Source of the DNA: Unio delphinus
Lineage: Eukaryota; Mollusca; Bivalvia; Unionida; Unionidae
Length of the DNA: 64,000 nucleotides
Reading direction: 5' to 3'
Assembly: GCA_029339505.1 (NCBI GenBank)
Contig: JAQISU010000345.1
Location: 188,501 to 252,500 of the forward strand
A model generated the notes under the pieces. That model saw only the letters and a list, made by a program, of their open reading frames with translations, was not told where the DNA came from and did no database searches. Each line of letters starts with the position of its first letter. Positions within the stretch are counted from its first letter, which is position 1. This document shows positions 19,181 to 63,865 of the stretch, piece after piece. The translations under genes were made by a program, and so were the position numbers.

Positions 19181-19848
19181 AGCAGCAGAGGGGGTGAATT
19201 CCAACGACGTTGGCGTCTTTTTTTTTGCCAAATGGCCATAAACCACAATTTATTTTACTATATGTTCTTTACATATATTTCTCAGCACTGACCTTTCCAC
19301 AGTGTGACAATCAATACAAATCATATGAAAATCTAAAATACCCCGAAAGATGACTTCACGGTGAAATTCTTGTCAAGGGTTGACCGGCATTTTTTTGAGT
19401 GGCTGCACTGTAAACAGAGCAGCATGTACACAGAACACTGATTTCACTTCCGGATCATCACTAAGGCCTAATTACACAGTGTGCACTGTCGCCAAAATAC
19501 ATACAGACAGCCACTCTCAGAGCTCCTATTCTCAAGAATAAAAAATTAACTTTAAATCCATACCAAAGATGCATCAATATAACTCTTCTATCACCACCAA
19601 AAGGAGAGAGGAAAAAATGTTCTAAAAATAGACTAGAACTACATTCGTGGGTACTGAACTGGAAGTATTAATTGTGCTGTGATTCCAAATAGACCCTTAC
19701 AAGGAAGCCTTAATTTACCAAATAGACCCTTCTATTATATATTTATTAGGAAGCCTCAATTTGTCAAATAGACCTTTCTAATAAATATATAATAAAAGGA
19801 AGTCTTGTTGACGCCTAAAAAGTTGGTCTGTTCACCCCCTCTGCTGCT
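19181..19848. repeat. Inverted-repeat module A (668 bp)
   Basis: It starts AGCAGCAGAGGGGGTGAA and ends TTCACCCCCTCTGCTGCT, an 18-bp perfect inverted repeat, with GTTAACCCAT just outside on the left. It holds three degenerate copies of AGGAAGCCTTAATTTACCAAA near 19696-19810 and no gene. It truncates the 3' end of the vertex-like gene. Confidence 0.8.
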
Positions 19849-21110
19849 TCCTCAATGATTAGAAACCCTAGAGAAGCTGTTGGTGCAAATGAATATAGAA
19901 TATATCCCTGCTGAGCTTGATTTGATCGTTCAAGATTTATTTGATAGCTGCCTTCGATAACATCACATACTAAATTCAATGCAATCACCGATGATCTATT
20001 GACGTTTTGAGGAGCGATATGTCTACCACCGCCGTCTGGGTCATTATTATACTTGAGGATTGTTGTTTGTTGTTTACATTTGGCGAGTATCATAGAAAAG
20101 TTTTCTTCAATAAGATCATTAACAGATTTTTTTAGTTCAATTGCGTTGTACCCAGGAAACTTGAAATCGGGTACATCAGCTTCTGTTATTTTGTAACCAG
20201 TTAGGAATTTTTGTCTATCTCCGTTCTTATCATTAATTATTACTTGAATTATTCATTTGTTGATATATTCCAAGCTGATTTAATATCCTAATGTGTTTTA
20301 TGATCTCATCACGTGGGCTTGTTATATAAGAGAGATGCTCTTAGAAGCTCCGTCGTAGTTGTTCTAGTTGTGTTCTATGTAACTGATTATCTCTTTCAAA
20401 TAATCAATGATGTTAGTTAAAGTAAATGTAATTGTAATGGTTGAATCAGGAGTTTTCTCAAAAACAAAATACCATTGTATGGTATTGTTATCGATAAATG
20501 TAAATCTATCGGTTAATTTTGTATTTTTTATATCAAGTAAATATTCTCGATATGATGGGTTGATTTCATATGATTGTATATCCGTGACATAATAAGATTT
20601 TTTTGGTTCGGGTATTTGATAAGATGCCTCAGGTGGTATTTCAGGCCATCCTAGTATTGTTCTTATTGAACTCTGATAGATATCTACGACATAACTAGAC
20701 GAGTTTATCTCAATCGCGGATGATAACGTCGGCTCATGAACTGTTATAGCGATCTTTGATTATGATGTTCCAGTAATTGATTTTATTCTACGTTGAAATT
20801 CGTTATTGATTTGTTCAATTTGGTATGACCCAGATGGTATCGAAACAACGTTCCAGTCTGGAGTTCCGTCTTCGCGATTCTTATTCGCAAACACCAAGGA
20901 ATTATTCGATTGTTGACCGCCAAATGATTTTGATCTGATATTAGGCCAACTATGGTAAACTCGTAATTTTGCTAACGCTATCTTCTTCACGGGAATCGGA
21001 GTAGGTAAATTCACGCTGAATTCAGGATTTGTTGATGTTATTGAGATCTGCTTGTTTTCACCGGGTTGGTATCTTCCGCTATTTGTTGAAGTAGTTCTTG
21101 CGACGACATT
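19849..21110 (-). pseudogene. Copy A vertex-like structural protein, broken
   Basis: Conserved N-terminal region (LRVYHSWPNIRSKSF, GSYQIEQINNEF, SSIRTILGWPE) and C-terminal region (RHIAPQNVN, ALNLVCDVIEG, NQAQQGYILYSFAPTA). The pattern of short beta strands suggests a jelly-roll vertex or penton protein (inference). An in-frame TAA near 20760, frameshifts near 20330-20360 and loss of the last ~40 codons at the module inactivate it. The middle part resembles copy B and not copy D. Its 5' end is fused in frame to the membrane protein by a one-base deletion relative to copy D. Confidence 0.65.
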
Positions 21111-21565
21111 GTTATTGTTATTATACTCATGTTGTCGCTCTAATTTTGACATCGCAGCATCGTAAACACGTACCATCGCGCTGAATTCACTATCGAATAT
21201 TAATGTGTCATCGAGTGACGACGATATCATCGAGGATAATTGCGAGCACGCGGTTGACACAACATGGAATTTAACTATGTAGTCTTGTAGTTTGTGCTGA
21301 CTGCATGATATTTTTTTTGTTATTATTGAAATAATTCCCGCGATTGTTGTTGCCGCTGCTATACAAATTGGAACAGCTATCGGAGCAATCATTGTCACCG
21401 AAGAGAGTATAATACCAGCTCCGGTGATTACATCACTCACCGAGTACACGGTAACATCAACTGCGGTGTTTCTTCGTCGGTATTTTTTTTTTATTTGAAA
21501 ACCCTCACTGAGTGTTTTGAGTTTAGTTTGAAATTCTCTGACCTGATCATAGCGATATTGCTGTG
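21110..21565 (-). pseudogene. Copy A two-helix membrane protein
   Basis: The frame is open from about 21565 through KYRRR, then two hydrophobic Gly/Ala/Ile-rich segments (VITGAGIILSSVTMIAPIAVP and CIAAATTIAGIISII), then a helical tail with SKLERQHEY. Small hydrophobic proteins of this shape are common in Polinton-like elements of invertebrates. The role is unknown, perhaps membrane association or entry. The start ATG is missing and the C-terminus reads into the vertex-like gene. Confidence 0.6.
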
Positions 21566-21620
21566 ATTTTATTTATTACAACAGATTTCAATTGAAACCG
21601 CCAGTAAAAATCGAAGATTT

Positions 21621-22840
21621 TCAGTTTAATTGTTTACGTAAATCCGCTACGAATTCCACATACCATGTTACTGAAACCCTAGTCAAATTATTATCAGTCG
21701 TTGTTATCACGAATATTTCAATTGTTCCTTTGTCGATGATCGATGATATTATATTGATGACCCCAGATGAACTCGTTGATGAAATATTAAATTGAGTCGG
21801 TGTCACTAGTGTTAATTGATAAATACCCTTGACGGTTGCAGTGATACTTAGTATGTTGTTTGTAGGAGTCCACGCAAATGATCCGTATTGAATCGTGTAT
21901 ACTACGTTGTTGGTTTTCTCATAAGGGATTTTTGTTTTTTCAATGATTTCTATCATCCTCGTTGCATCATCTTTGATTGCCTTGATAAAGATTTTCATAT
22001 CATCGATGGAATTTTTAATATCAGGGAGTTTTATGTCAATTTTATCCAACGTGGTTGCAAAAAATTTATCAATGATATTTTTACGAAAGGATGTAAACGT
22101 TTCAACGTGATCTGGATTGAAGTGTTGCAAACTCTAACATAGAAGTTTTATCTCTGTGAGCTTCGGTGTGGTCACTGGAGGATTATCAAAAACTTATAAT
22201 ACGGGTTTAATAATATTGTCTATGATGGATTTTTGTAAACTAGTAAATTCATTAAATGCATTTAAATGATCTTCATACTCTTTAACATGATCCGCGTATT
22301 CATTTTTAAACGTTACAAACTCTGATATAGAAGTTTTATCTCTGCAAGATTTGGTGCGGTCACTGCAGGATTATCAAAAAATTCTAATACGGGCTTATTA
22401 ATATTGTCCATGATGGATTTTTGTAAATCAGTAAATTTATTAAATGTATTTATATGATCGTCATACTTATCATTGAGCGATTTCAATGAATTCGCCGAGG
22501 ATATATAATTGTTATCGAGTGATAATATTTTATCTGTGATTGTTGAAACAAGTGCGCCTGGTTTGAGTTTACCCTGATTGGTAAACAACGCGATAGTATC
22601 TTTTACTGCGTTGCGTTGTTTAACTAAAATATCATCCAGAGAAACATTATTCGTTTTCAATTTACCCTGACAATCTTGAAAAACAACTATTTCATTGGAA
22701 TCAACATTTCCTAAGTTCAACATCTCAGCTATTTCATCTTCGATTATTTTTTTGACATCGCCGATTGCAGATATTTCCGCAGTGCCATCGGCATCGGGTT
22801 TTTCGAACATTGATAAAGATCTCCCCCAAGTATCAACCAT
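21621..22840 (-). pseudogene. Copy A fibre-like protein, split
   Basis: The N-terminal part (22313-22840) begins MVDTWGRSL and has the QGKLKTNNVSLDDILVKQ repeat once. The C-terminal part (21621-22130) ends with a beta-rich domain (VYTIQYGSFAWTPTNN and YQLTLVTPTQFNIS) of C1q/TNF-like look. A tandem duplication of about 180 bp (22131-22310 against 22311-22465) and a stop separate them. The stalk-plus-globular layout suggests an attachment fibre (inference). Confidence 0.6.
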
Positions 22841-22866
22841 TGTTATTGTAAAAATCTTTTGATTTT

Positions 22867-23323
22867 CTAATTACTTCGTTGACGACTTCGTCGTTGCCAG
22901 CGACTACTTGTATATTCATTTACGACTTGATGAGGTGGTTTTCTCGATGATGAAATAGCGTCAAGGACATTCAATACTTCTATGCAGCATTTTGGTGGGT
23001 CATTCATTTGTTGTGTTGGTAGCGTAGAATGCCAAGTCTTCATTTTTAGAAAATCTTTGATTTTGGAAAAGTATTTAATTGTTGTATATAATGCATACAT
23101 TCTTTAGGCGGCGATAACCCATATGAATCAAAATAAACGATTGCACGCGGATCAATCACGTACGCAACCCAGTAGATTCCAGGTCCTGTGCTGTTATCGA
23201 GATTAATGATACCGGTTTCAACGTTTTTTGGTTGCGTCGGCAACTGATCTTTCATAAAGACACCTCTGAAGTTTTTAATCGCTAGTTTTTTTAGCGGCAT
23301 CGAGTAAATCAAAATTTGACATG
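22867..23323 (-). pseudogene. Copy A adenain-like protease, active-site His lost
   Basis: Starts MSNFDLLDAAKK near 23323, frameshifts near 23290, then NFRGVFMKDQLP and TGPGIYWVAYVIDP, then FDSYGLSPPKE, a further frameshift near 23050, and PPKCCIEVLNVL. In copies B and D the His of the GTHWVAY motif is present. Here the codon at 23172-23174 gives Tyr. With two frameshifts as well, this copy cannot be an active maturation protease. Confidence 0.75.
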
Positions 23324-23329
23324 GGAATC

Positions 23330-23812
23330 GAAGATTCCACAATCGAAGGTTCCCGAGTTAGTAAACCGTTCATGGTATTCTCAGGCCGCTTCCTTTGTAC
23401 CATGAATACGGAGTTTCTGGTAGTATTAGACGCTTTCCCTTTTTTGTATCCTTGTTCAGTTACTTTCTTTAGTGCCATCCCTGCCGCGGTAACAACGGCT
23501 CCTAACGCTGCTGCTTTAGCTACCGCTGGGGCTGCTGCTGCAATTAGCGCTGGTAACGCAGCTAACAACAAAAATATGCCACCTGCTTTATCATGTTTTT
23601 GATCGAAGCTGCAGAGAGAGTGATCTGAACACCTTTTTTATCTTTGAAAGTATCATTGAAATGTTTTATTTGACGAGTTGTCAATGATAATTTATTCTGA
23701 CCACCAGACACCTGATTGTGTATCGTGGTTCCACATTTTTTTTAGCTGATTCCGATTGCAATTTTTTAATCTGACCGGGATTCAATGTAACACTAATATG
23801 ACTATATGACAT
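23330..23812 (-). pseudogene. Copy A pVI-like minor capsid protein, frameshifted
   Basis: N-terminus SHISVTLNPGQIKKLQSESAKK near 23812, a frameshift near 23735, then the Ala-rich segment LPALIAAAAPAVAKAAALGAV and a basic tail. It matches copy D 55860-56369. The Ala-rich amphipathic segment recalls adenovirus pVI/pX-type membrane-active or core proteins (inference). Confidence 0.65.
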
Positions 23813-23880
23813 TATTAAAACTACTAGTAGTTTAAATAACAGATTGATCTAATTGTTACATTACATATTTTTGGAAAGCG

Positions 23881-25296
23881 CTACATGTTTTCTACTGGTG
23901 CATCGATTACTCTCATTCGTCCACCAACACCTTCAAGTAACATTGATTTGTCTCTGAGAATGACAGCAACCGCTCTGTAATTAGCAATACCACCAGGACT
24001 GGCTACACGAGCTCTAAAGTGTATATCAACAACGGATTGTCTTGTTAAATCAAGATCTTCCAGTGAAAAGTAATAAATCGGATATAAACTTTTAAAATCC
24101 AACTGTGATATTTGGAGACCAGTATCGACATTTTGATCGCGTCCCATATATGACAACAAACGATGATACACGCGTGCAATATGGTTAGTAGTGTAAATAA
24201 GTTGTATGTCCTCGGATGGTTCCTGCTGCCCGTTTATTCTCAGCGAGACTTTATTAACACCTATCTGATCAAATATCACATGACTTCGTTCTTGATTACC
24301 AACTCGCGCGTTATTCTGTAGCGCAATAAATATATGACGTGGAGCTGAAACACCTAGTGTTGATGCCAGGTGCCATGTAAAAGTATCATCAACATCATCC
24401 TGTTTAGTATCCGTGGTCACTGTTAGCCAACTTAGCATTGATTTTTCTCCATGATCCATAAATAATAGTAATCGCTCTTCTGTTGTGATTGATGGAGTCA
24501 TTACTGGCATCCACAGTGATAGTTTTGTTAAAATGACTTTACCCTCGGGAGCACCAGCATCACGCCAGATTGCATCATTATCATTACCTTTTCGCACGAG
24601 TGCTACTGTATGCTTCGCTCCATAGATAACTTTTCGGACATTTCTACAGAATCCAAATATATGATGCAGTGGAATTGCGCATGAAAATCGTCGATGTTGT
24701 CCCTCTAATAATGCTACGCGTGTTGCAAATCCTAGGTTGTAATTAGTGATATTATTTATGACATCAAAATCAGCAGCTGGTCTTACATATCCCAGTGGCA
24801 CTGGATTAACTGCACCAGCATTTGCTGCCTTTACTCTAGAATACTGGACGTGTTCAGCGTTATTAGTAGTATCCTTAGAAACCATCATAGATGGACCCGC
24901 TGATATTGTATAATCATCACAATATTTTGCTAACCCTATTATTGTTGTAGCAATATCAACCTCACGTTCAATAGATTCAATTTCTCTTCCATCAATCATA
25001 TATCTAGCACTTTCAAATAGCGCCATGATACCATTATTAACAGAACCAATTCGGATAGTTGGGCTATTGTCATATGGTGTATTAGCTTCAACATTTGTTA
25101 CAAGTTCTCCTTCTACTTCGATAAACGCTTCAGCGGGTAGAAAATATTTACTGGTATCATGAACTTGAAGTTCGATTCTTGATCGAAGATCGTGTTGTAT
25201 TGCGTGATAAGAATAAAATTGATAATCGCGTACAGAGTCATCTTTACGCACTGGGGCGTCCATATCAAACGCTGGATCAAGTGTCTGTTCGAACAT
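23881..25296 (-). CDS. Putative major capsid protein, copy A, intact
   Basis: 471 residues, uninterrupted, starting MFEQTLDPAFDMDAPVRKDD. It is the largest and most conserved structural protein in the window, present in copies A, B and D next to the protease and pVI-like genes, where Polinton and adenovirus-type elements keep their capsid genes. Recognisable conserved stretches are IPLHHIFGFCRNVRKVIYG, KLSLWMPVMTPSITTEERL and DFKSLYPIYYFSLEDLDL. A double jelly-roll fold is expected for such elements but cannot be read from the sequence. Being intact inside an otherwise decayed block is notable. Confidence 0.65.
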   Translation of the reverse strand: MFEQTLDPAFDMDAPVRKDDSVRDYQFYSYHAIQHDLRSRIELQVHDTSKYFLPAEAFIEVEGELVTNVEANTPYDNSPTIRIGSVNNGIMALFESARYMIDGREIESIEREVDIATTIIGLAKYCDDYTISAGPSMMVSKDTTNNAEHVQYSRVKAANAGAVNPVPLGYVRPAADFDVINNITNYNLGFATRVALLEGQHRRFSCAIPLHHIFGFCRNVRKVIYGAKHTVALVRKGNDNDAIWRDAGAPEGKVILTKLSLWMPVMTPSITTEERLLLFMDHGEKSMLSWLTVTTDTKQDDVDDTFTWHLASTLGVSAPRHIFIALQNNARVGNQERSHVIFDQIGVNKVSLRINGQQEPSEDIQLIYTTNHIARVYHRLLSYMGRDQNVDTGLQISQLDFKSLYPIYYFSLEDLDLTRQSVVDIHFRARVASPGGIANYRAVAVILRDKSMLLEGVGGRMRVIDAPVENM

Positions 25297-25339
25297 TTTA
25301 TTATATATTCCTCGATCTAAATCATGATTTTTATCATCG

Positions 25340-25715
25340 TCGTCGTGGTTTTAAGCTACTTCCCTTTATCATGGTTGCAATATTATTTCTCTGTGCCTCA
25401 TATACATCCGAAGTCGTCAACGATGCTAATTTTTGATCTACTGCGTTATTTATTATTTTACTAACATTTGTAGGCATCACTTGTGTAGATGGTAAGGGCA
25501 TTGTTGGTTTTCTTCGCCGTCGAATAACGACATTAGTTTATCCTTTGCAGAGGAAAATGCTTTCGAGGCAATATCTCCAACAGCGCTAATACCCTTATCA
25601 CGAATAACATCAATAGCTTTCATTGATAATTGTTTTGCTAATGGTGCTATTTTTGGAGCCACCTTGAAATAACCGCATGCAGATATTAGCTGCTTCATTA
25701 ATTATTTCCGGTGAG
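25340..25715 (-). pseudogene. Copy A gene X (unknown), one frameshift
   Basis: Encodes VAPKIAPLAKQLSMKAIDVI and GISAVGDIASKAFSSAKDK, then after a frameshift near 25505 the tail MPTNVSKIINNAVDQKLASL. The intact homologue is at 33983-34384. It is a small helical, Ala/Lys-rich protein of unknown function located just upstream of the capsid gene. Confidence 0.6.
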
Positions 25716-26575
25716 TTATTTCCAGCTCGTTTTCCTCCTATGAGAACCTCTAATCGTGCTATATCACTGAGAATATTACTAGGGCAACGAACAAGACCCC
25801 TACCTGAAATCCCACTTGGACTACTCTGAGAAAATCCTTCTCCACTTGATTCTTTAGTGATACCAGTTGCACCCGCAGAATCAGCTTCTTCTTTCATTAT
25901 TTGTATTTCCTTGGCTGGGTATGTATACCCACTCTTTACTGCAGATATAAATTTCGGAAAATCACTGAATCTTTGTGTTATTCTATCTCCGCCGTGTTTT
26001 GCCAAATATACCTTCCTTGCCCAGGTATCAATGCTTTTTACAAAATATCTAGACTTGTCATCTTTTAAATAAGTATTTCTTATATCCTTTCTAAAATTTT
26101 CTATAGTAAAATTAGCTAATCCGGAGTCTTTTCTGATTTCTCTAATTATATTTAACGCATCAACTGTAAATATTTTTTCAGGTGAATAGTCCTTTCTTTC
26201 ACTTTCTTTTTCTTTAAATTTCTTCAAGTGGTTCAACTTCTCCTTGAGTTAATATATTACCATAGATTTTTTCTAAAGACTTTTGTCTTTTTTTCAGTTT
26301 CTTCTGCTATTTTTTCAAGTACAGGAAGAAGAGGTGTTTCTTTTCTTGTTCCTTCCTTGGGGATATCTCCGTATATTGCTCGCTCAGTGGCTGATATTAG
26401 CCCCTTCGTTGCCGTGGTTATTGGTTTAAACAGGTCTTCAGTCCCTGCAGTAAACCAGTCTGAAGACTCTGTCTAGCTTGTAGTTTTTCTCTAACAGAAT
26501 CACGGATTGGTATGAATTTCTTAATCGAAGCTAATCGTTCGCGTGCTAATCTAGTCGTTAGTGCTTCGTTTACCA
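25681..26575 (-). pseudogene. Copy A gene Y (unknown), frameshifted
   Basis: Starts MVNEALTTRLARERLASIKK at 26575, like fragment E. The long C-terminal piece (25610-26236) includes KYFVKS-like and RKVYLAKHGGDRITQRFSDF segments and ends with SGRGLVRCPSNILSDIARLE and VLIGGKRAGNN. Frameshifts occur near 26460 and 26240. The GGKRAGNN tail is shared with copy B. The function is unknown; it lies within the structural block. Confidence 0.6.
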
Positions 26576-26754
26576 TTATATAGAACGACAGATTGTCTTG
26601 TTAAATGTACGATAGAGCTACATACTGTCTTGTTAAATGTAGTGAAAAATGCAACAAAATGATCAAAAATCAAAAAAAAAAATCTGCAAATTCATTCACG
26701 GTGAAGAACACACGCATACTTGTTAGGTGAGTAAGAGTTCTACCTGTCCATTGT

Positions 26755-27153
26755 ATTGTATAGAACTTATTCTGTTGAGGTAACCAAAGTGGGGTTTTCA
26801 GTTTGGCGGATAATATCTCTTATTGTTTTAACCCTCAAATTAATTGTGCGTTTGATTACATATTGCTGCCCCAATTCTTTTCTGATTTTTTCGATAATAG
26901 TGAATAACGGGACAAACTTTCTGGCGAAAGTGTCGCGAATAGCATTCTGGATTTTCTTTATAAAAACGTACCCTTTTGGGTTCTTTTTCTTTGAGATTTT
27001 CTCTCTTCTTTTCTCTTTGACCCTATGACCGTTTCATTCTTTCTGAAAATCAGAAAGAATTTGATCACAATTTAATCGATCTGATAATTGAATTCCTTGA
27101 TTTTTCAAATTTGAAATCTCAGTTATGATCTCATTGATATTTTCAGAATTCAT
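26755..27153 (-). pseudogene. Copy A gene Z (unknown), one in-frame stop
   Basis: Starts MNSENINEIITEISNLKNQG and is open but for one TGA near 27034. It is Lys/Arg-rich in the middle (KEKREKISKKKNPKGYVF) and helical after that (IQNAIRDTFARKF). No domain is recognised. It is the most 5' gene of copy A. Part of its sequence (26976-27044) is duplicated at 27290-27352. Confidence 0.5.
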
Positions 27154-27744
27154 TTATATATAATAATACATATCTCTAATTTGAAAAATTGATATATTGA
27201 TATTGATATATTTATCAAAATTAAATAATAGCCATGGTGAGCGATTAGCATTCACACTGGGTCCCTTATTTGGCCTTTGTGTCTTTCATAGGGTTCTTTT
27301 TCTTTGAGATTTTCTCTCTTTTTTCTCTCTTTGACCCTATGACCGTTTCATTCTGAACTATCCTGTGGGGTTACCCTAGTGTGTGACGTAGTGTGTGACG
27401 TGTGTGGCGGGTGCAGGCCATGCTATTATTTATTTTGGGGGCGCCCATAGACATATTTCCAGTGAATTTTCTAAGCGAAACGAAATGTTAGAATATTCTG
27501 AAGACTGTCTATGTATTTTTTGTACACCTTCCCCCAAGAATTAATTTCCCGGGGGTGTATAAAAATCACACCGTCACGTATTTGACGTGACGGGAGGTGT
27601 ACACGAGGTACCTTTTGGGCTGGCGCCACCAATCATATAGAAAAAAACCTCTAAATCGGTACCTCCGACAGTGTCTGTTGCGAGAATCTAATTATGGGCC
27701 TCGGGACGGTACCGCAATGTGTTACGAATAGGCTAAATTCGATA
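27154..27744. other. Non-coding flank of copy A with duplication and palindrome
   Basis: 27290-27352 repeats 26976-27044 (GGGTTCTTTTTCTTTGAGAT and ACCCTATGACCGTTTCATTC). 27573-27593 is a near-perfect palindrome CGTCACGT-ATTTG-ACGTGACG, 15 bp after a TATAAAAA at 27556. No coding frame was seen. Confidence 0.55.
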
Positions 27745-27990
27745 TCTACAAGTAAATGCTTTTGAATATAAGACATCTCTATCAAACGGAATACTTGAAG
27801 AAAAAAAGAATACAACTGTTTGTAACTGTTGTATATACAACTGTTGATTCGTTTTCTTACAGATATATCTCCATTGAGAATCATGACAGTTTAAACAGTA
27901 AAATATGGTTAAACTGTCTTCCTTTCCTAAACTCTATTTGTTCTAAATGGACAATTATTATAGTGAATAAAGACACAGTCTGACGGAAGG
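27745..27990 (+). repeat. Flank repeat shared with 18930-19150 and 63866-64000
   Basis: Same block order as at 18930-19150 (GGAATACTT, AAAAAAAGAATA, GTTTGTAA, GATTCGTTTTC, ATTGAGAATCATGACAG). It lies left of copy B, separated from its module by about 430 bp of non-coding DNA (27991-28420) in which nothing else was seen. Confidence 0.55.
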
Positions 27991-29840: not shown

Positions 29841-29848
29841 TACTGAAT

Positions 29849-53743: not shown

Positions 53744-53750
53744 CGTTGCT

Positions 53751-55359: not shown

Positions 55360-55383
55360 GTTGTTGTAAAACTCTTTCTCTCT

Positions 55384-55839
55384 CTAAAATCGTTTTTGAC
55401 GACTTCGTTGAAAAATCTTCGATTTTCTCCAGCGATTACTAGTGTATTCATTCACAACAACATGTGGTGGTTTTCCGCTTGGGTTACTCAAGGAGTTAGA
55501 AATAGCGTTAAGGACATTTAATACTTCGCTGCCACATATTGGTGGGTCAATCATCGTTTGTGTTGGTAGCGTAGAATACCAAGTCTTCATTTGAAGGGTT
55601 TTTATATACCGCATAAACTCTTTTGGTGGGGCTAATCCATATGAATCGAAATAAACAATCCCACGTGGATCAATAGCGTATGCAACCCAGTGAGTTCCAG
55701 GTCCGGTGCTGTTATCTAAATTAATGATTCCGGTTTCAACGCTGTTTGGTTGATGTGGTAATTGATCTTTCATAAAGACACCTCTGAAGTTTTTAATCGC
55801 TAGTTTTTTAGCAGCATCCATTAAATCAAAATTGGACAT
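55384..55839 (-). CDS. Adenain-like cysteine protease, D3, intact
   Basis: 151 residues from MSNFDLMDAAKKLAIKNF. This start is chosen because copies A and B begin the same way, although the frame is open to 55950 through the neighbouring gene's tail repeats. The catalytic set fits adenovirus-type maturation proteases: His50 in GPGTHWVAY, Asp65 in FDSYGLAPP, Gln94 and Cys102 in DPPICGSEVL. It would cleave capsid precursors such as the pVI-like protein. Confidence 0.82.
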   Translation of the reverse strand: MSNFDLMDAAKKLAIKNFRGVFMKDQLPHQPNSVETGIINLDNSTGPGTHWVAYAIDPRGIVYFDSYGLAPPKEFMRYIKTLQMKTWYSTLPTQTMIDPPICGSEVLNVLNAISNSLSNPSGKPPHVVVNEYTSNRWRKSKIFQRSRQKRF

Positions 55840-55859
55840 GGGAATCTTCGATTCCTCAA

Positions 55860-56369
55860 TTAATAAATCGTTCCTGGTAGTCTTAGACCCTTTCCGCTGT
55901 ACCACGAATACGGGGTTCCTGGTAGTCTTAGACCCTTTCCGCTGTACCACGAATACGGGGTTCCTGGTAGTCTTAGACCCTTTCCCTTTTTTTTATATCC
56001 TTTCCCAGCTGCTTTCTTTAGTGCCATTCCTGCTGCAGTACCAACGGCTCCTAACGCAGCCGCCTTAGCCACCGCTGGGGCTGCTGCTGCAATCAATGCT
56101 GGAATCGCAGCTAACAACGGGAATATATCGCCTGTTTTAATCATATTTTTGATAGCAGCCGCAGAGAGAGTAATCTGAACACCTTTTTTGGCTGCAAGTG
56201 CATCATTGAAATGTTTTATTTGACGAGTTGTCAGTGATAATTTATTTGCACCACCAGTCATTTGGTTGGGTTTCAACGTGATTGTGGTTCCACATTTTTT
56301 AGCTGATTCCGATTGGAATTTTTTGATTTGACCAGGAGTTAACGCAACACTAATAACACTATATGACAT
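55860..56369 (-). CDS. pVI-like minor capsid protein, D3
   Basis: 169 residues. Two repeats of an LTPGQIKKFQSESAKKCG-like motif (residues 9-35 and 45-72) are followed by an Ala/Gly-rich hydrophobic segment (LPLLAAIPALIAAAAPAVAKA region, 85-125) and a basic stretch GKGYKKKGKG. The C-terminus repeats GKGLRLPGTPYSWYS two and a half times. Adenovirus pVI and pX share the membrane-active Ala-rich helix and a protease-cleaved tail. The GKGL motifs could be cleavage or binding sites (inference). The end overlaps the open frame upstream of the protease. Confidence 0.65.
   Translation of the reverse strand: MSYSVISVALTPGQIKKFQSESAKKCGTTITLKPNQMTGGANKLSLTTRQIKHFNDALAAKKGVQITLSAAAIKNMIKTGDIFPLLAAIPALIAAAAPAVAKAAALGAVGTAAGMALKKAAGKGYKKKGKGLRLPGTPYSWYSGKGLRLPGTPYSWYSGKGLRLPGTIY
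55875..55990. repeat. 45-bp coding tandem repeat, 2.5 copies
   Basis: Each unit carries CGGGGTTCCTGGTAGTCTTA then GACCCTTTCCGCTGTACCAC. It encodes the repeated tail of the pVI-like protein and, in another frame, VQRKGSKTTRNPVF upstream of the protease start. Confidence 0.9.
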
Positions 56370-56417
56370 TATACATTATTGATTGATTCTAATTCAATGA
56401 AAAATCGAGAAAATCAA

Positions 56418-57636
56418 TCAAAGATTTTCTACTGGTGCATCTACCACTCTCATTCTTCCACCAACACCTTCAAGTAGCGTTGATTTATCACTGAGAATGA
56501 CAGCAACCGCTCTATAATTAGCAATAGCACCACGAGTCACATTAGCTCTAAAGTGTATATCAACAACAGATTGTCTCATCAAATCGAGATGTTCCAGTGA
56601 GAAGTAATAGATCGGATACAGATTTTTAAAATCATATTGTGATATTTGCAAACCAGTATCGACATTTTGATCGCGTGCCATAAATGACAACAGACGATGA
56701 TAAACTCGTGCAATATGATTTTCGGTGTAATTAAGTTGTATATCCTTGGATGGTTCCTGCTGGCCGTTTATTCTCAGTGAGACGTCTTTCACACCTAACT
56801 GATCAAATATCATATGGCTGGAGAGTTGATTGCCAACTCGTGTGTTATCCTGTAACGCAATAAATATATGACGTGGCGCAGCAACACCTTGTTTTGATGC
56901 TAGATTCCACGTGAATAACCCGTTGATATTTGATTGTTTAACATCTGTACTCACGGTTAGCCAACTCAACAACGACTTTCCTCATTGGTCCATAAATGAT
57001 AGTAATCGTTCTTCTGCGGTGATTGCTGGAGTCAACACTGGCATCCACAATGATATTTTTGTTAAATTGACTTTACCGGCATCAGCATTGGGATTTGCAG
57101 CATCTGCTAAAATCCTCCAGATTGCGTCATTATCATCACTCTTTCGTACAAGCGATACTGTATGCTTCACCCCGTAGATAACTTTTCTGACGTTTCTACA
57201 GAATCCAAATATGTGATGCAGTGGAATCGCGCATGAAAATGATTTACGCGCTCCTTGCAACATTGAAATACGTGTTGCGGCTCCTAGATTGAAATTAACG
57301 TCGTTGTTTATAATCATATTCTCGACATCAGCATCACTATTATCACGTTTTTTTGGTCGTCCTACAACAAATGGATTTCCTCCAGCGGTATTCTTACCAT
57401 CTTTTGCAAACATCATAGAGGGTCCTGCTGATCTTGTATAATCATCAGAATATCTCGCTAACCCGATTATTGTTGTAGCCACATCAACATCGCGATCTAT
57501 GGACTCAATTTCTTTTCCATCAATGAGATATCTAGCACTCTCAAATAACGCCATAATACCATTATTGACAAAACCGACTTGAGTACCATCTGGATACGGT
57601 GCTAGTACAGCAGGAGTATTATCAGCTGTTACAAGT
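56418..57636 (-). pseudogene. Putative major capsid protein, D3, truncated with one TGA
   Basis: Matches copy A residues from about 70 to the end. The 5' ~70 codons are lost at module D2 (57637). A single TGA at 56979-56981 falls where copy A has glycine in FMDHGEKSMLSWL. The two remaining frames (56418-56972 and 56982-57636) are otherwise well kept (IPLHHIFGFCRNVRKVIYG, SLWMPVLTPAITAEER, YPIYYFSLEHLDL). Confidence 0.7.
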
Positions 57637-57803
57637 AGCAGCAGAGAGGGTGAATCATACAACATTTTTTGTTTTTATTTTTGATTATACCCCCTCCAAA
57701 TAACACTAGACCCTTCTAGCGAAAAAATGACAGTGAACATGGGATGTTGTATTCGCGAATCATAAATGTCGCAACGTCGTTGTCACTCACCCTCTCTGCT
57801 GCT
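57637..57803. repeat. Inverted-repeat module D2 (167 bp)
   Basis: Starts AGCAGCAGAGAGGGTGAATC and ends GTCACTCACCCTCTCTGCTGCT. The ends are paired for 17 bp. The right flank CTTTCAGTTGGGGTTAACC merges into the ATPase stop codon. It interrupts the D3 capsid gene. Confidence 0.85.
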
Positions 57804-57819
57804 GAACTTTCAGTTGGGG

Positions 57820-58485
57820 TTAACCGAATATTTGATCCAGTCCGATACGATATCGTGTCCTAGGGTCTGCTAAATTTATTGTCACAAATCCGTGTGGTTT
57901 TGACTGAGCGTGACTAAAGAAATTTCTAAATTGATTATGATTCATATCACCGCTGCACCAAGTCTGATGAATATTTCGTAGCGTATGAGTATCAACACCG
58001 TTAAATACACACAACACATTGCAATTATCTCTGATCACTTTTGGTATTTGTGTGTACCGTTGAGTGACATAGATCACATCAGTGTTTTTATGCCTGCCTC
58101 GGGAAAATATTCTAGCAGGATTTTTTTGATTATCTAACATGATATCATCGTATACCACTAAATTGTTAATACTTCCATCGATGTCTTCCACGGAAGGGGC
58201 TTCCTCTATATCAGTAATAAACTCAATAAAATCTTCATCGATTTGAAATTCTTTTGCTTTCTCGTTAAAATCCTTTAGCACTTCATAGCATCACTGATCG
58301 TCTACACTCGGGGCTATTAAATACAATTTGTTCCATTTCATCCATCTCGTTATCAAATTAAGTAGCAGTTGTGTCTTTCCGCTTCCAGATGGTCCGATTA
58401 TAATCATTCTAATTGAATTCGGCAAAATTTCATGATGTTTAATAGGTTCCCGTCGTCGGGTAGCTGAAAAATCAATTATATTCAT
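57820..58485 (-). CDS. Packaging ATPase, D2, one in-frame TGA
   Basis: About 221 codons from MNIIDFSATRRREPIKHHEI. Walker A GPSGSGKTQLL, Walker B NNLVVYDDIML, then DVIYVTQRYTQIPKVIRDN and end RTRYRIGLDQIFG, as in D1. The only defect is TGA near 58289, where D1 has CGA (Arg in VDDQRCYEVL). The stop TAA is part of GGTTAACC next to module D2. It diverges from the PLA2 gene with a 17-bp gap that contains TATATATAA. Confidence 0.8.
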
Positions 58486-58502
58486 GCCGTTATATATAAA
58501 TT
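58486..58502. promoter_or_regulatory. 17-bp divergent start region between ATPase and PLA2 genes
   Basis: The start codons face away from each other across a gap containing TATATATAAATT. The D1 copy has a 16-bp gap. Any shared promoter must lie inside the coding starts or be this AT tract (inference). Confidence 0.4.
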
Positions 58503-59031
58503 ATGGATCTATATTGTGTGAAGTGTAAAAAACGTACTGGCACAGATGACTTGACGACGATTATAACTAAAAATAACCGATCAGCGCTTTCTGGTAAATG
58601 CGTACAATGTAGTACAAAGAAATTTAGATTTGTTTCTAAACCCAAGGAACCCAAGGAACCTTTAAAAAAAACGAGGAGGTGATATCGCAGCCAAGCTAAC
58701 TAAACTCCCTGGAACCCCATGGGCAAAATACCCTGGAGAAAAGCACCTTCCAGGATATAGCTACTGTGGACCGGGAACAAGACTTGATATCAGACTCAAT
58801 GATCAAAATCAGCCCCGACCCGGTGAGGAACCAATAAACGCTATTGATAAGGCCTGTCACCTTCATGATGTATCTTATAAAAGCAGTAATCTGCAGCACA
58901 GGCATCTAGCAGATGTGAAATTAATTCATGCGTTAAATGCTATTTCTGATAAATCTTTCAAAGAAAAATTGGCTTCCTTTTTGATAAAATCGGCTATGAA
59001 AAGTAAATTGATGTTAGGTGCTGGTAATTAA
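58503..59031 (+). pseudogene. Zn-ribbon plus PLA2 protein, D2, frameshifted at an A-run
   Basis: The N-terminus has CVKCKKRTGT and CVQC ribbon pairs. The PLA2 domain has YCGPGTRLD and LHDVSYK. The two parts are out of frame at a run of eight A (near 58663-58671), where D1 has nine. Apart from this it is about as well preserved as D1. Confidence 0.82.
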
Positions 59032-59038
59032 TAACAAC

Positions 59039-59992
59039 ATGGAATCTATTTATTATTCCCCAAGAGGATACTGGAGAGGCAAGGCAGCAATTCATAAACT
59101 CGCTAGCGCTGCAAAAGTGAAAAAGGCCACTGCGGCTAATTGGTTATCCAAACAGGCCCTATGGCAAATTTATCTACCACCACCTAAACAAATTCAATTT
59201 TCGCATTTTGATGTGACCGGACCCAATGAAGTTCATCAGGCTGATCTATTATTTTTGACACATGATCGTGGTTACAAATACGCGCTAACCGTAGTTGATA
59301 TTGCAAGTCGATACAAAGAAGCAGAACCGTTAAAAACAAAATCAGCCACTGAAGTGGCTTCTGCATTTGAAAGGATTTATCGAAGGAGTCCTCTGCACTG
59401 GCCAAATCTATTACAAATTGATCCTGGCAAGGAATTTCAGGGTGCAGTGTTATCAATAATGAAAAATCATAAAGTCACTATCAGACGAGGACATACTGCG
59501 CTACATCGTGATCAGGCAATTGTAGAACGGTTTAATAAAACCCTTGCTGAGCGGTTATTTGGATATCAATACGCAAAAGAATTCATCCAAGAAAAAAGAT
59601 CCCGTGAATGGGTTAAAAGGTTACCAGCTGTGATTACTGCACTGAATAACGAGATTACTAGAACCATCAACATGAAACCTATCAATGCGATTAAAAAGAA
59701 GTCAATACCTGAAATGGAAATTCAAAAAGATTTTAGCGTTTCCCAACCAATTCTTGGTAGTAATGTCATTGTGAGGTACTTATACGAACCAGGAGAGCTT
59801 GAGGGTGGCACAAAAAGGGCTACTGATCCTATTTGGAGTGTTACTGCACACAAGATATCTAGTATAACACGATCTACGGGTAGACTTCCAATCTATAAAC
59901 TGGATTCAACTGCCCCTCAACGGGGTTTTACTAGACAACAATTACAAGTGATACCTGAGGATACTCAATTACCACCGCATGGGCTTAACTAG
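59039..59992 (+). CDS. Retroviral-type integrase, D2, intact
   Basis: 317 residues from MESIYYSPRGYWRG, 8 bp after the PLA2 stop. Catalytic Asp69 (HQADLLFL), Asp128 (LQIDPGKEF) and Glu163 (DQAIVERFNKT) lie in the rve core, with 34 residues between the last two, where retroviral integrases usually have 35. The C-terminus has NVIVRYLYEPGELEGG, TDPIWSVTAHK and a PIYKLDS domain. Close similarity to D1 and full preservation point to recent activity. Confidence 0.92.
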   Translation: MESIYYSPRGYWRGKAAIHKLASAAKVKKATAANWLSKQALWQIYLPPPKQIQFSHFDVTGPNEVHQADLLFLTHDRGYKYALTVVDIASRYKEAEPLKTKSATEVASAFERIYRRSPLHWPNLLQIDPGKEFQGAVLSIMKNHKVTIRRGHTALHRDQAIVERFNKTLAERLFGYQYAKEFIQEKRSREWVKRLPAVITALNNEITRTINMKPINAIKKKSIPEMEIQKDFSVSQPILGSNVIVRYLYEPGELEGGTKRATDPIWSVTAHKISSITRSTGRLPIYKLDSTAPQRGFTRQQLQVIPEDTQLPPHGLN

Positions 59993-62900
59993 CACCCTTG
60001 CGTCTATTGCACTCAAGACAAGTCAACATCACATTATTTCTGACATGACCGAGATTGTTATTTTTTCTGTCAACGGTGAATTGGCGAGGATCCTTATCCG
60101 AATACTGCCAACGCATTATACAATTGGAACTTGCGCAGTGATTATTCTGTTGCTGCTTTAACGCAATTATTAATTCAGCATCAATATCAAATTCTCGTTG
60201 TTTTTTTTTGTCTTGTTGTTTGTAACCGGAGAGTTTTTTATTAATGATGCTAACATCAATATCACTTATTGTTGTGTCATTATCATCGCCTGACTCTGTC
60301 AGGACAATTCTTCGAAGCTGATTTATTTTTCGTACTCTGGATACTGAAAGATAGACTAAATTCGACCATTCGATGTGATTATCTACCATCCAAACAATTG
60401 TATCCGATATAGTCAATCCCTGTGAAGAATGTATCGTCGCTGCGTATCCTAGCGTCCATGGGGATTTATTAGCACGCAATGCATCTTCAACGACATTGAT
60501 ATCAACCAGCACAATATCGTTTAATACGAGAATCTGCTTTTCACTTCCTGACTCTGTCAGGCCTGGAATATCAACTTCGATGTTCTGTTTTCGTGTATCC
60601 GATGGCCTATAACAGAGGGGCACTGGAAGTGTTGCAAATTTTTGTTTATGCAATTCAAATAACTTCATCTGAAGTGTGTCCCTGACTATTTTTCTACTTG
60701 CAATAATTAAATCATTTGGTCTCCACGCTTCCCAAAACTCATTCATGGGAGTTTCCGAAATTATTTCACGGGCTATTTCACACTGGATTTTATCCGGTTG
60801 TAATCTAATTAGTTTCTTAAATTCTTTTAATTCATTATCAAGTGATCTATGATCGGTATCAATTTCTTCATAATAGTCTACAAAACCCTTTAGCCATTCA
60901 TGGGGGGATGCACCGACAAATGGTGGTGGTTGGCCGTGATCACCGCACATAACGACTTTTGTATTCTTCAATAACAACCACTCAAGAAATATTTTTAAGA
61001 CATCTTCGGACACTGTGTCTATTTCATCCCAAATGATAATTTCAGGAATAAATTTTTCTCCCATGCGCTCAGGAGTCCATTTATCTCCCTTCCATCTAAA
61101 GAAACTATGATAAGTGCAAGCATTTACCCCTCTCTGTATCATTTCTCTTGCAAGTCTGTGAGTCGGTGTTAGCACAATCATGTTTGATTTGGAAACACGA
61201 AATAACTCAATTACCCGGGTTGTTTTCCCTGACCCACCACAACCGTTTAAATAAACTGTTTTATATCTACAGATTGGATCAGAAATCGGTGGTGCACTAG
61301 AAAATTCTGAACACTGATTGCTTTCTAAGTAATTATTTTCAATGGTAACATCTGCTGATGGAATATAATCATGAAGCATTTCCTTCTTAATTCTCCATGA
61401 CCCCCAATTCTCGTTGCCAGTAGCCTTAAAATCGGCCATTTTGCTATTTATGTAAAATGAGTCAGTAGCAACTCTAACTGCGGTGGTAGGAAATCTATTG
61501 ATCATTGAAAATAAATTAATAGAAGCATAACCAAGCATAGAAGCTCTCAAATGTGTGTACTGTAGATTGTATCCATCAGTGTAAGTAACAATTGTACCCA
61601 ATTTGGTTCCATCGGACATAAATGCGTCCTTACGATTGACATATAGGCCCCTATTCGTTAAATCCGTGATTACAAAATCGTATTCAGCATTGTCTATAAT
61701 CAATCGTGAAGAATATCTCGTATTATCATCTTTACCACCTTGGGTAAATTTACCGATTATTCTTCGTCCAAGGTCTTTTGCTTCATTGTTTCTGATTTCA
61801 TATAACTGTTGGGACCAATCCATGATTTGTTGTTCACTGAAATTTGGAAACAGTTTTCGCTCTTCGCTAATTATTTTTTCTAGATCAGGTTGTGGTAACC
61901 AGACTGATTTCTGTGCTCGATAGGATATAATTGCTTCACTGACAATTAATGATTTTAACATCTTACAATCAAGCATATACCGTAATAACACTATTGGCAT
62001 CCAGTGTTTTTCAGACATGTGTTTACCAATCCAAAGATAACTACACGGATGAAGTCCTTCAGCCATTTCAAATGATACTACACAAGCGAATCCGGTTAAA
62101 TCGAAATGTGGCAGTGGTCCATCAATAGCAACACGGGTCATTTCGTGTGTAGGGTGTCCAAATCGTTTGAAATATTTCTTACACTCTCCATACCCAAGAA
62201 AACTTCCTGGATAACATGCAATCATATCAACGGAAATAACGGTATCAGCGGTGTATTTTGTGTTCCATAATCCTCCATGGCTGTATTCAAGACAGGACAA
62301 TTTGACATCTGATAAGAACTCACTTCGTGTTGGTTTCCACGCGTTTTTCTTTCTAGCAAAATGTGCTGCAATGGATGGTACTGTAAAACAGTTTGCTAAT
62401 AATTGATCGTTGTCTTCCCCCAGAGAACTCTGGGGAGAAAACTCACTAGCTAGTTGTTTCATTTGATTATGCAGCTCTTCAGTACGGTATAATTCTCCGT
62501 TGGGCCTTACAAACTGATCAAATCTACATTCTTCGTCTGAATTACTATGAAATAGCCACACTGACACAGGATCGTTTTTACTCAAATGGTAAATAGCATC
62601 AAATAATTTCTTCTCTGAAAAAAACTCTTCGGTTTCAAACAGATATTTTACGGTTCTATCCCGTGGGAATATTGTTACTGCAGATGACCACGCGTGTGCG
62701 TTATGATCAATAATTTCAATGGGAGCTCCCTGTGATTTATATTTCGATTCGTATAATACTTCTCCGGTGATTGTCCTTACCGATATTGGAAATCTCAATG
62801 ATGTTTCTAATTTGGCTATATCTTGAATTGTTGCCCCATGCTGTTTCACTGTCAGTTCCCACTCGGTTATTTTTTTTCGTCTTAGATCAGTTAGTTTATT

Positions 62901-63458
62901 TCCCCGGGACGCATTTGTGAAGTGTTCTATTATTCGTGTTGCTACACAATTGAGCCCTGTCGAATATTTCATGGGTGCTAGTTTTGAAATATCAGGTTTT
63001 TCATTGAGCGGATATATCCCGTAAACAACTACTGTGACAGGATAAGATCTTTCGTAGTAGGGTTTATCAAGTCCAGTCAAAATTCCTGGTTTTGAATCCT
63101 GAGTCACAGTGACAGTTTTTTTGTCCTTAAGAATAGGCTCGTATTTGTCCCTAATGATCCATTTTCCATTATCACGGATAAGGAATTTTATTCGAAAAAA
63201 ATTTCTTTCTTCCCCAAGACGTGAGATTATCACTGCTGCTTTTTCATCATTCATGGTAGCGTCAACAACACCATCAATTCGAAATGTTGACCAACAATGA
63301 GCTGCCCCATCACGCTTGAATTCATTAAAACAGTCTCTGATTTTACTAATCAAGGTTCTATCAAGAATTTTATTCTTTGGTGTATCAGAAACTCTATCAA
63401 GATTGAATTGAACACTTTTCCAAGGCTTAATTTTCGATAATCTCTCGAACTCCTCCAT
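59985..63458 (-). CDS. Family B DNA polymerase fused to SF1 helicase and HNH-like domain, D2, intact
   Basis: 1157 residues. The N-terminal ~390 residues include no clear exonuclease motif that I can name. Polymerase motif A is VDMIACYPGSFLG (Asp411), a motif B-like segment is DLGRRIIGKFTQGG (562-575) and motif C is VATDSFYI (Asp666). An SF1 helicase follows: Walker A NGCGGSGKTT (738-747), LTPTHRLA (763-770), Walker B IIIWDEI (807-813), MCGDHGQPPPF (837-847), IHSSQGLTI (1009-1017) and VYLSVSRV (1035-1042). The last ~60 residues form a zinc HNH-like domain (VDRKNNNLGHVRNN, CLECNRRKG), with one Cys of the first pair changed to Ser (HCASSNC). It would replicate the element. It converges on the integrase with an 8-bp overlap. 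Confidence 0.92.
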   Translation of the reverse strand: MEEFERLSKIKPWKSVQFNLDRVSDTPKNKILDRTLISKIRDCFNEFKRDGAAHCWSTFRIDGVVDATMNDEKAAVIISRLGEERNFFRIKFLIRDNGKWIIRDKYEPILKDKKTVTVTQDSKPGILTGLDKPYYERSYPVTVVVYGIYPLNEKPDISKLAPMKYSTGLNCVATRIIEHFTNASRGNKLTDLRRKKITEWELTVKQHGATIQDIAKLETSLRFPISVRTITGEVLYESKYKSQGAPIEIIDHNAHAWSSAVTIFPRDRTVKYLFETEEFFSEKKLFDAIYHLSKNDPVSVWLFHSNSDEECRFDQFVRPNGELYRTEELHNQMKQLASEFSPQSSLGEDNDQLLANCFTVPSIAAHFARKKNAWKPTRSEFLSDVKLSCLEYSHGGLWNTKYTADTVISVDMIACYPGSFLGYGECKKYFKRFGHPTHEMTRVAIDGPLPHFDLTGFACVVSFEMAEGLHPCSYLWIGKHMSEKHWMPIVLLRYMLDCKMLKSLIVSEAIISYRAQKSVWLPQPDLEKIISEERKLFPNFSEQQIMDWSQQLYEIRNNEAKDLGRRIIGKFTQGGKDDNTRYSSRLIIDNAEYDFVITDLTNRGLYVNRKDAFMSDGTKLGTIVTYTDGYNLQYTHLRASMLGYASINLFSMINRFPTTAVRVATDSFYINSKMADFKATGNENWGSWRIKKEMLHDYIPSADVTIENNYLESNQCSEFSSAPPISDPICRYKTVYLNGCGGSGKTTRVIELFRVSKSNMIVLTPTHRLAREMIQRGVNACTYHSFFRWKGDKWTPERMGEKFIPEIIIWDEIDTVSEDVLKIFLEWLLLKNTKVVMCGDHGQPPPFVGASPHEWLKGFVDYYEEIDTDHRSLDNELKEFKKLIRLQPDKIQCEIAREIISETPMNEFWEAWRPNDLIIASRKIVRDTLQMKLFELHKQKFATLPVPLCYRPSDTRKQNIEVDIPGLTESGSEKQILVLNDIVLVDINVVEDALRANKSPWTLGYAATIHSSQGLTISDTIVWMVDNHIEWSNLVYLSVSRVRKINQLRRIVLTESGDDNDTTISDIDVSIINKKLSGYKQQDKKKQREFDIDAELIIALKQQQNNHCASSNCIMRWQYSDKDPRQFTVDRKNNNLGHVRNNVMLTCLECNRRKGAS

Positions 63459-63482
63459 ACTATAATTAAAACAAGCATTTAA
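63459..63482. promoter_or_regulatory. 24-bp divergent start region between polymerase and Cys-rich genes
   Basis: AT-rich ACTATAATTAAAACAAGC separates two divergent start codons. A compact bidirectional promoter is possible (inference). Confidence 0.35.
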
Positions 63483-63851
63483 ATGAAAGATTTAAGTATA
63501 ATGAATCATTGCAAATGGCTTATGATTGGATCAGTGACACCGTGTAACAAATCATGCAGAAATGAATTCTGTTGGTATCATATGCAAAGCTTTCGTCGTG
63601 GAAGCCTTGGTCCGTTACCCTGTATTCGATGTGGGGTTGGGGTCAGGGGAAAATCGCAATTATGTTTTAGGTGTGGCGGCAAGCGATACAGGGAACTAAA
63701 ACGCTATTATGACAATCGAATAAAAAATGGACAATCAATCAGAAATTATGAACCTGACACTGACAAAGTCAGCGACAAAATCATAAGATCCCCTCAAGAC
63801 TACATTGAAAGATTCTCCAGTGATGTTATTAATGACTTAGACAAACAATAG
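63483..63851 (+). CDS. Cys-rich zinc-binding protein, unknown
   Basis: 122 residues, or 116 from the second Met (MNHCKWLM). Cys/His clusters are HCKWLM, PCNKSC, EFCWYH, PCIRCG and LCFRCGGKRY, then a basic helix and an acidic tail (NYEPDTDKVSDK). A treble-clef or ribbon type DNA-binding protein is likely. Divergent from the polymerase gene by 24 bp, it may be an early regulator (inference). No homologue is seen in the other copies. Confidence 0.65.
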   Translation: MKDLSIMNHCKWLMIGSVTPCNKSCRNEFCWYHMQSFRRGSLGPLPCIRCGVGVRGKSQLCFRCGGKRYRELKRYYDNRIKNGQSIRNYEPDTDKVSDKIIRSPQDYIERFSSDVINDLDKQ

Positions 63852-63865
63852 TTAGTATACAAATG

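What the first reader, a model, noticed from the sequence alone, without database searches (positions are those of the whole stretch)
19181..63865. At least three copies of a Polinton/adintovirus-like element with a full virion gene set
Seen: integrase, packaging ATPase, PLA2 protein, PolB-helicase, adenain-like protease, pVI-like protein and a conserved 471-residue putative capsid protein recur together in copies A, B/C and D, plus fragment E at 16913-17797. Known: Polintons/Mavericks and adintoviruses combine PolB, integrase, ATPase, protease and capsid genes. Inference: this is an integrated or endogenised virus lineage with recent activity, because D2 polymerase (1157 aa), both D integrases, D1 PLA2, the D3 protease and the copy A capsid are uninterrupted.
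Basis: partly seen in the sequence, partly recalled or inferred. Interest (0 to 1): 0.88.

Follow-up and report, generated by a model that had tools for sequence, protein, structure and literature searches.

The report
Mussel genome full of capsid-bearing virus elements
This stretch of a freshwater-mussel-like genome holds six copies or fragments of a roughly 16-kb DNA virus that carries its own integrase, polymerase and capsid genes, and the ends of the same virus occur many thousands of times in that genome, with many copies recent and many genes uninterrupted.

The parts
16927..19848 (-). Copy E1 (fragment): pieces of core-like gene X (17086-17915) and terminal region 19181-19848; ends inside copy A's mCP gene
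   Evidence: X homologous to 26253-26600; inverted terminal motif pair; rest of E1 not recognised
19849..28607 (-). Copy A: mCP-like gene (19849 to about 21062, broken, 3' end cut off), p195, p323 (broken), protease pieces 22870-23357, pX-like 23278-23848, uninterrupted capsid, gene X 25337-26600, then 26.6-28.4 kb without recognised genes, terminal region 28424-28607; Z, pol, INT, PLA2, ATPase absent
   Evidence: 26.6-28.4 kb no more like the matching part of E1 than 8 shuffles (44% vs 41-46%)
23881..25350 (-). Major capsid protein of copy A, uninterrupted (471 aa from first Met)
28608..40498 (.). Copy BC: mCP to X on - (28608-35116), pol + (35180-38119, several frames), INT - (38118-38959), PLA2 - (39075-39458), ATPase + (39610-40231), terminal region about 40302-40498; X-to-pol region and first 148 pol residues missing
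   Evidence: self-BLAST/tblastn; order agrees with 3 of 3 R-side stretches elsewhere in the genome
49248..52053 (.). Copy D1 (part): terminal region 49248-49511, ATPase 49540-50184 (-), DUF5679+PLA2 50213-50755 (+), INT 50742-51704 (+), last ~120 aa of pol 51697-52053 (-), cut at 52053
50213..50755 (+). DUF5679 domain + parvovirus-type phospholipase A2
   Evidence: PF08398 7.2e-12, PF18930 2.4e-11
50742..51704 (+). Retrovirus/IS481-type DDE integrase, uninterrupted (second copy 59018-59992)
   Evidence: PF00665 5.7e-9; IS481 model 1.2e-14, below its cut-off; dN/dS 0.17 between the two
52054..57636 (-). Copy D2 (M-side part): terminal region 52054-52280, mCP-like gene 52375-53767 (two frames), p195 53815-54402, p323 54412-55383, protease 55384-55992, pX-like 55860-56375, capsid 56418-57636 (two frames) cut at 57636; its left end interrupts D1's pol
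   Evidence: capsid continues beyond D3 at C361:261762
57637..64000 (.). [not shown]
59985..63491 (-). pPolB palm - SF1 helicase - HNH nuclease fusion, uninterrupted (1157 aa from first Met)
   Evidence: AAA_19 1.7e-11, AAA_30 9.1e-9; endonuclease VII/HNH PHROG 1.7e-8; palm motifs A/B/C in register with phage pPolBs, score 29.3 vs at most 21.5 in 20 shuffles
49248..49264 (+). Outer terminal motif AGCAGCAGAGAGGGTGA (others: 19181+, 19832-, 28424+, 40482-, 49495-, 52054+, 52264-, 57637+, 57787-)
   Evidence: 14 hits with at most 3 mismatches vs 0.03 expected, of which 3 are one coding site in three copies and one (17606) is unexplained; 27,898 exact hits genome-wide vs 0 in the reversed control

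Best explanation
A recently active, self-replicating integrating DNA virus (polinton-like virus with a Tlr1-type replicase) that has expanded to thousands of copies in a unionid-like mussel genome. Shown, piece by piece on different copies: the unit [TIR] ATPase(-) PLA2(+) INT(+) POL(-) Z(+) ... X(+) MCP(+) pX PRO p323 p195 mCP(+) [TIR], 15.6-16.9 kb, with 5-bp target duplications. Inferred: the genome is copied as linear DNA by protein priming with the PolB-helicase fusion; the integrase joins the AGCAGC ends to host DNA with a 5-bp stagger; ATPase, protease, DJR capsid and minor proteins make and fill an icosahedral particle; PLA2 breaches a membrane at entry. New copies can land in older ones, which breaks genes and gives the nested arrays of this window.
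For: Gene identities. DJR fold. Palm homology. Gene order in 3 of 3 R-side and 3 of 3 M-side stretches from six other copies chosen for open capsid frames (pol in L017 and mCP in L022 incomplete). Both ends found in 4 of 7 further copies tried, all 4 with perfect 5-bp TSD and TIR identity 97.8-99.4%; D3 is a fifth. 27,898 exact terminal 17-mers, control 0. 36 of 40 scored polymerases uninterrupted over the full length; 111 of 126 scored capsid matches without stop, 59 of them in frames of 460 aa or more. Purifying selection in 14 of 14 piecewise comparisons. Eight homologues elsewhere, 41-72% identical over 76-99% of the polymerase.
Against: No virion, transcript or free genome seen; no relative with the virion genes in IMG/VR in five scans. 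mCP, pX-like, p195, p323 and X have no convincing family hit. PolB palm support is statistically modest (hhalign probability 1.8-3.9%, E 0.011-0.027) and the AlphaFold model of the polymerase failed (pLDDT 43). The protease hit is below the curated cut-off. Three of the seven copies tried did not show their R-side end. D2's far end did not show D1's missing pol, so that nesting is supported at one end only.
Confidence: 0.82

Rival explanations
1. A bona fide Polinton/adintovirus (Polintoviricetes, Adintoviridae).
For: RVE integrase, A32-type ATPase, DJR capsid, adenain-like protease, TIRs, ~16 kb; PLA2 lipases are reported for some Polintons (PMC4642659 passage).
Against: No PolB family hit in any of 9 homologues; no exonuclease detected and fusion to SF1 helicase + HNH, the Tlr1-type signature (PMC11071308 passages); TSD 5 bp rather than the 6 bp used for vertebrate Mavericks.
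Confidence: 0.12
2. A purely intracellular transposon: virion genes are kept but particles no longer leave the cell; spread is by replicative transposition.
For: Very high copy number, nested insertion, no viral-contig relative.
Against: Capsid under purifying selection between copies (dN/dS 0.21-0.29) and many long open capsid frames; PLA2, an entry function in parvoviruses, strongly conserved (0.05, 0.07). Genome-only data cannot exclude it.
Confidence: 0.3
3. Old duplicated insertion, inactive for a long time.
For: Several window copies (A, BC, E1) are decayed; BC vs D dS 0.65-0.91 (99).
Against: TIR pairs differ by 7 mismatches in 767 aligned columns over four copies and the TSDs are perfect; 36 of the 40 best polymerases are open.
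Confidence: 0.03
4. Contamination or a virus of a symbiont assembled with the host.
For: None direct.
Against: Copies lie on many contigs, those whose length was shown being 0.58-43.6 Mb; named relatives lie on 2-165-Mb contigs of Sinanodonta woodiana and Potamilus streckersoni.
Confidence: 0.01

Closest known systems
Tlr1 element of Tetrahymena and Tlr1-type polinton-like viruses (pPolB-S1H; PMC11071308, passages seen)
   Same: pPolB palm without exonuclease fused to SF1 helicase and a C-terminal nuclease (HNH or GIY-YIG); first Asp of motif C replaced; RVE integrase (Tlr1), DJR capsid, packaging ATPase
   Different: Found in an animal genome; carries adenain-like protease and parvovirus-type PLA2; thousands of copies; no tree made
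Vertebrate Mavericks/Polintons (PMC8097293, passages seen; gene set also from PMC11071308 passages)
   Same: RVE integrase, packaging ATPase, protease, DJR capsid, TIRs, ~17 kb
   Different: 6-bp TSD and true pPolB there; intact copies at most 38 per genome there, thousands of element ends here
Adintoviruses (Starrett 2021; paper not held, recalled)
   Same: Animal-associated linear dsDNA with integrase and adenovirus-like virion genes
   Different: PolB architecture, as far as recalled; no sequence compared
OmPLV of Oxyrrhis marina (PMC12721341, passages seen)
   Same: SF1 helicase-pPolB fusion in an endogenised, fragmented PLV
   Different: There the helicase is N-terminal, the exonuclease is kept and no RVE integrase was found
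Hard-clam paper's Mavericks (PMC8905726, one table passage seen)
   Same: Abundant Maverick-class DNA in bivalve assemblies: 1.69% and 1.93%, 7,091 and 6,453 pieces in the two columns seen
   Different: Repeat-masking counts; type of polymerase not given in the passages seen

Membership tests
Tlr1-type polinton-like virus | pPolB palm fused to C-terminal SF1 helicase in one protein | tested here: met
   helicase; palm motifs in register, 0 of 20 shuffles reach the score; statistically modest
Tlr1-type polinton-like virus | C-terminal HNH or GIY-YIG nuclease | tested here: met
   PHROG endonuclease VII/HNH 1.7e-8 at 1091-1167 (80)
Tlr1-type polinton-like virus | exonuclease domain absent | tested here: inconclusive
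   pPolB alignment begins after the exonuclease part and no Pfam hit; a fold was not obtained
Tlr1-type polinton-like virus | N-terminal terminal-protein and vOTU domains | not testable with these tools
   polymerase model pLDDT 43 (76)
Tlr1-type polinton-like virus | phylogenetic grouping with Tlr1/PLV proteins | not tested
   no reference sequences at hand
Polinton/Maverick | bona fide pPolB (PF03175 type) | tested here: not met
   0 of 9 homologues hit a PolB family in Pfam at E up to 1 (81)
Polinton/Maverick | RVE integrase | tested here: met
   PF00665 5.7e-9 (6)
Polinton/Maverick | TIRs with 6-bp TSD | tested here: not met
   TIRs yes; TSD 5 bp in 5 of 5 copies with both ends found
Polinton/Maverick | adenain/Ulp1-type protease | tested here: inconclusive
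   C5 E=0.004, Ulp1 0.057, both below cut-off
Polinton/Maverick | DJR major capsid protein | tested here: met
[quoted passage not shown]
   mCP-like gene has homologues in two named unionids; no family hit, no fold predicted; the name mCP rests on recall and position
Adintovirus | alpha/beta adintovirus PolB and virion proteins | tested here: inconclusive
   PolB architecture differs; no adintovirus sequences compared

The most novel reading that the evidence does not exclude
A living animal virus lineage with a Tlr1-type replicase, in the passages I read reported from PLVs of protists and from giant-virus plasmids, uses the mussel genome as a reservoir of thousands of proviruses, forms PLA2-armed particles and still moves between unionid individuals or species.
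Probability: 0.3. Interest if true: 0.88.

Novelty: new variant of a known kind. Interest (0 to 1): 0.72.

Why it matters
Intact Mavericks are scarce in vertebrates (at most 38 per genome; PMC8097293 passage). Here one genome carries many thousands of element ends, many open frames, near-identical TIRs and perfect TSDs, so the old question whether such elements make particles becomes testable in living animals. It also puts a Tlr1-type polymerase-helicase fusion together with a retroviral integrase, an adenain-like protease and a parvovirus-type PLA2 in an animal genome, which bears on how polintons, PLVs and adenovirus-like viruses exchanged modules.

Tried and rejected
Tried without use: AlphaFold of the polymerase (pLDDT 43.4), not searched further. 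Five IMG/VR scans gave one distant helicase locus (L001, 26%) and no virion set; genome contigs and metagenome contigs were not scanned. E1 and A share a core-like gene but their 1.4-1.8-kb right parts are no more alike than 8 shuffles. Rejected: that the short stretches between inverted motif pairs (167-668 bp in the window) are independent MITEs; they are the outer part of the element's own TIR, since the same arrangement bounds units of 15.6-16.9 kb with TSDs. Rejected: that D shows the native gene order; six stretches from other copies give another order. Not shown: D2 inserted in D1 with a TSD. Beyond the window D2's pol runs straight into another copy's mCP gene, and the next R-side end found (C361:280559) belongs to that copy and is not followed by D1's pol. 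Seven copies were tried for TSDs; for three (C14, C9, C138) the R-side end was not found in the stretch fetched. Copy number: the C1 sample (27 spans of 14-18.5 kb between exact ends in 5.85 Mb; 200 random controls mean 1.7, maximum 6) is denser in motifs than the genome average, so 11,556 by area and about 7,850 by motif ratio (my arithmetic) are both rough. The dN/dS counts keep only columns with at least 40% identity in a 15-codon window; the mCP comparison has 53 codons. Whether true Polintons (PF03175) also occur in this genome stayed open: nine such requests met a busy machine. A feature missing from a fold list is not taken as absence.
Full report
OBSERVATION. Stop-to-stop frames, self-BLAST and Pfam scans confirm the recurring gene set in 16.9-64 kb. 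Uninterrupted frames: capsid 23881-25350 (PF21738, 1.5e-18), integrases 50742-51704 and 59018-59992, PLA2 50213-50755, ATPase 49540-50184, polymerase-helicase 59985-63491. The longer DNA matches between copies are 71-87% identical, and nonsynonymous change is held down: dN/dS 0.05-0.37 in 14 of 14 piecewise comparisons: PLA2 0.05 and 0.07, ATPase 0.10, integrase 0.09-0.17, protease 0.16, capsid 0.21-0.29, polymerase 0.22-0.26, mCP 0.37 (53 codons).

POLYMERASE. The 1168-residue frame has an SF1 helicase in its second half (RecD2/Pif1 type) and an HNH/endonuclease VII domain at its end. None of 9 homologues hits a PolB family in Pfam. Profile comparison of residues 300-740 with seven phage protein-primed PolBs fetched for this purpose aligns 237 columns with motifs A, B and C in register: SVDMIACYP with FDVNSLYP, IIGKF with LYGKF, ATDSF with CDTDS. 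Score is 29.3 against at most 21.5 in 20 column shuffles; E is 0.011 and the probability low (3.9%; whole profile 1.8%, E 0.027), as both profiles are shallow. The first Asp of motif C is missing and the alignment starts after the exonuclease. PMC11071308 (passages) describes this architecture: Tlr1-like helicases keep the pPolB palm, lack the exonuclease, gain an SF1 helicase, end in HNH or GIY-YIG, lack that Asp, and occur in PLVs and transpovirons; Tlr1 itself carries a retroviral integrase. So the element works like a Polinton but its replicase is of Tlr1 type.

ENDS. A 17-base motif occurs 14 times in the window with at most 3 mismatches, 0.03 expected. Three (23607, 32185, 56157) are one coding site in three copies and one (17606) is unexplained. 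Eight form four inverted pairs; 28424 pairs with a more diverged copy ending at 28607 and 40482 with a decayed one, both read by eye. The five pairs span 167-668 bp. In four of five, element body lies on one side and on the other a gene cut at the edge of the motif: D1's pol at 52053, D2's capsid at 57636, and the mCP genes of A (19849) and BC (28608), while homologues in other copies run through these points. The fifth (49248) has tandem-repeat DNA outside. Folded as single strands the pairs at 49248, 52054 and 57637 give z of -6.4, -6.4 and -6.1, and the one at 28424 -3.1; the 668-bp one was not folded.

UNIT IN THE GENOME. The window is G000:C361:188501-252500 of a 2.505-Gb assembly. Three R-side stretches (L017-L019) read POL(-) Z(+) ... 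X(+) MCP(+) in 3 of 3, L017 with half of pol; three M-side stretches (L020-L022) read MCP pX PRO p323 p195 mCP, L022 with its mCP cut short and no motif. For seven copies I sought both ends and found both in four: 5-bp TSDs AATCA, AGAAG, AGAGC, ATATT, all perfect; lengths from their positions 16,487, 16,378, 16,871 and 16,870 bp; TIR alignments of 161-213 columns at 97.8-99.4% identity. D3 is a fifth: predicted from its left end, its right end was found 15,624 bp on, followed by CAAGT and the missing part of D2's capsid; the 161 bp of its second TIR held show 2 mismatches. The same prediction for D2 in D1 failed at the far end, because D2 is itself broken there.

COPY NUMBER AND STATE. The exact 17-mer occurs 13,926 + 13,972 times, reversed control 0 + 0. 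In the first 5.85 Mb of contig C1, 96 of them form 27 spans of 14-18.5 kb with inward-facing ends, random control mean 1.7. Scaling by motif number gives about 7,850 copies, by area 11,556; at ~16 kb that is about 5-7% of the genome, a rough figure. Polymerase: 40 scored of 72,602 candidates, all 40 full length, 36 without stop, identity 96-97% apart from the window's own copy. Capsid: 126 scored of 25,216 candidates, 111 without stop in the match, 59 of these in frames of 460 aa or more; 0 of 14 control genomes had a match (101). These are the best-scoring copies, not a random sample. Which single copies have all genes open was not assessed.

HOST. Named relatives are Sinanodonta woodiana (Unionidae; capsid P0021, mCP P0048 and P0049) and Potamilus streckersoni (P0057, P0059; Unionida according to PMC10294476).

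AGE. Seven mismatches in 767 aligned TIR columns over four copies, i.e. K about 0.9%; with an assumed 1-4e-9 substitutions per site and year this means insertions of roughly 1-5 million years (inference).

PRINT. Ten paper searches were made. Among the titles and abstract starts listed I saw none about a Tlr1-type fusion in a mollusc or other animal. Limits: lists were capped, Krupovic 2016 and Starrett 2021 were not held, PMC3671162 (passages) says that some sequences of its helicase tree came from Repbase, so earlier Repbase entries cannot be excluded, and PMC10120064 (passages) notes cnidarian capsid genes outside the main Maverick-Polinton cluster while its own genome survey left animals out. 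Maverick-class DNA is known in bivalves (PMC8905726, PMC10294476, passages), and PLA2 in Polintons is known (PMC4642659 passage). PMC11071296 (passages) describes other mixed 'meldviruses'.

MECHANISM. Shown: gene set, capsid fold, order, ends, TSDs, abundance, constraint. Inferred: protein-primed copying, integrase-driven insertion with a 5-bp stagger, particle assembly, PLA2 at entry. Whether particles leave cells is the open question.

Noticed in passing
window 12372-16582: Retroelement remains (RVT_1, RNase H, Integrase_H2C2) left of the array; 14996-16582 is a 528-aa frame with only an H2C2-type domain at its end.
   Followed up: no
L017:3072-3629, L018:3786-4298, L019:3876-4265: In other copies the region between Z and X carries a further gene that by eye resembles a NUMOD4/HNH homing nuclease (name recalled, not tested by family search), plus ~119-aa and ~93-aa frames.
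   Followed up: partly
window 49228-49247 and C361:280560-280567 (L038): Flank left of D1's R-side end and flank right of a further copy's R-side end share CATGTA offset by one base, as if a composite with two R-ends had inserted; unexplained.
   Followed up: no
window 19849 and 28608: Two insertions lie about 53 bp apart in the same 3' part of the mCP gene of two copies; target preference or coincidence.
   Followed up: no
window 55870-55985 and 55006-55200: Tandem repeats inside D2's pX-like/protease overlap (45 bp x 2.6, identical) and p323 (93 bp x 2.1).
   Followed up: no
proteins P0006-P0009 (P0006 on a 15,132-bp contig): A second group of polymerase homologues at 41-42% identity to the window's, one on a contig about as long as the unit; possibly free genomes, contig not readable here.
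   Followed up: no
window 17606-17622: A terminal-motif match with 3 mismatches inside E1's gene-X region that fits no end.
   Followed up: no
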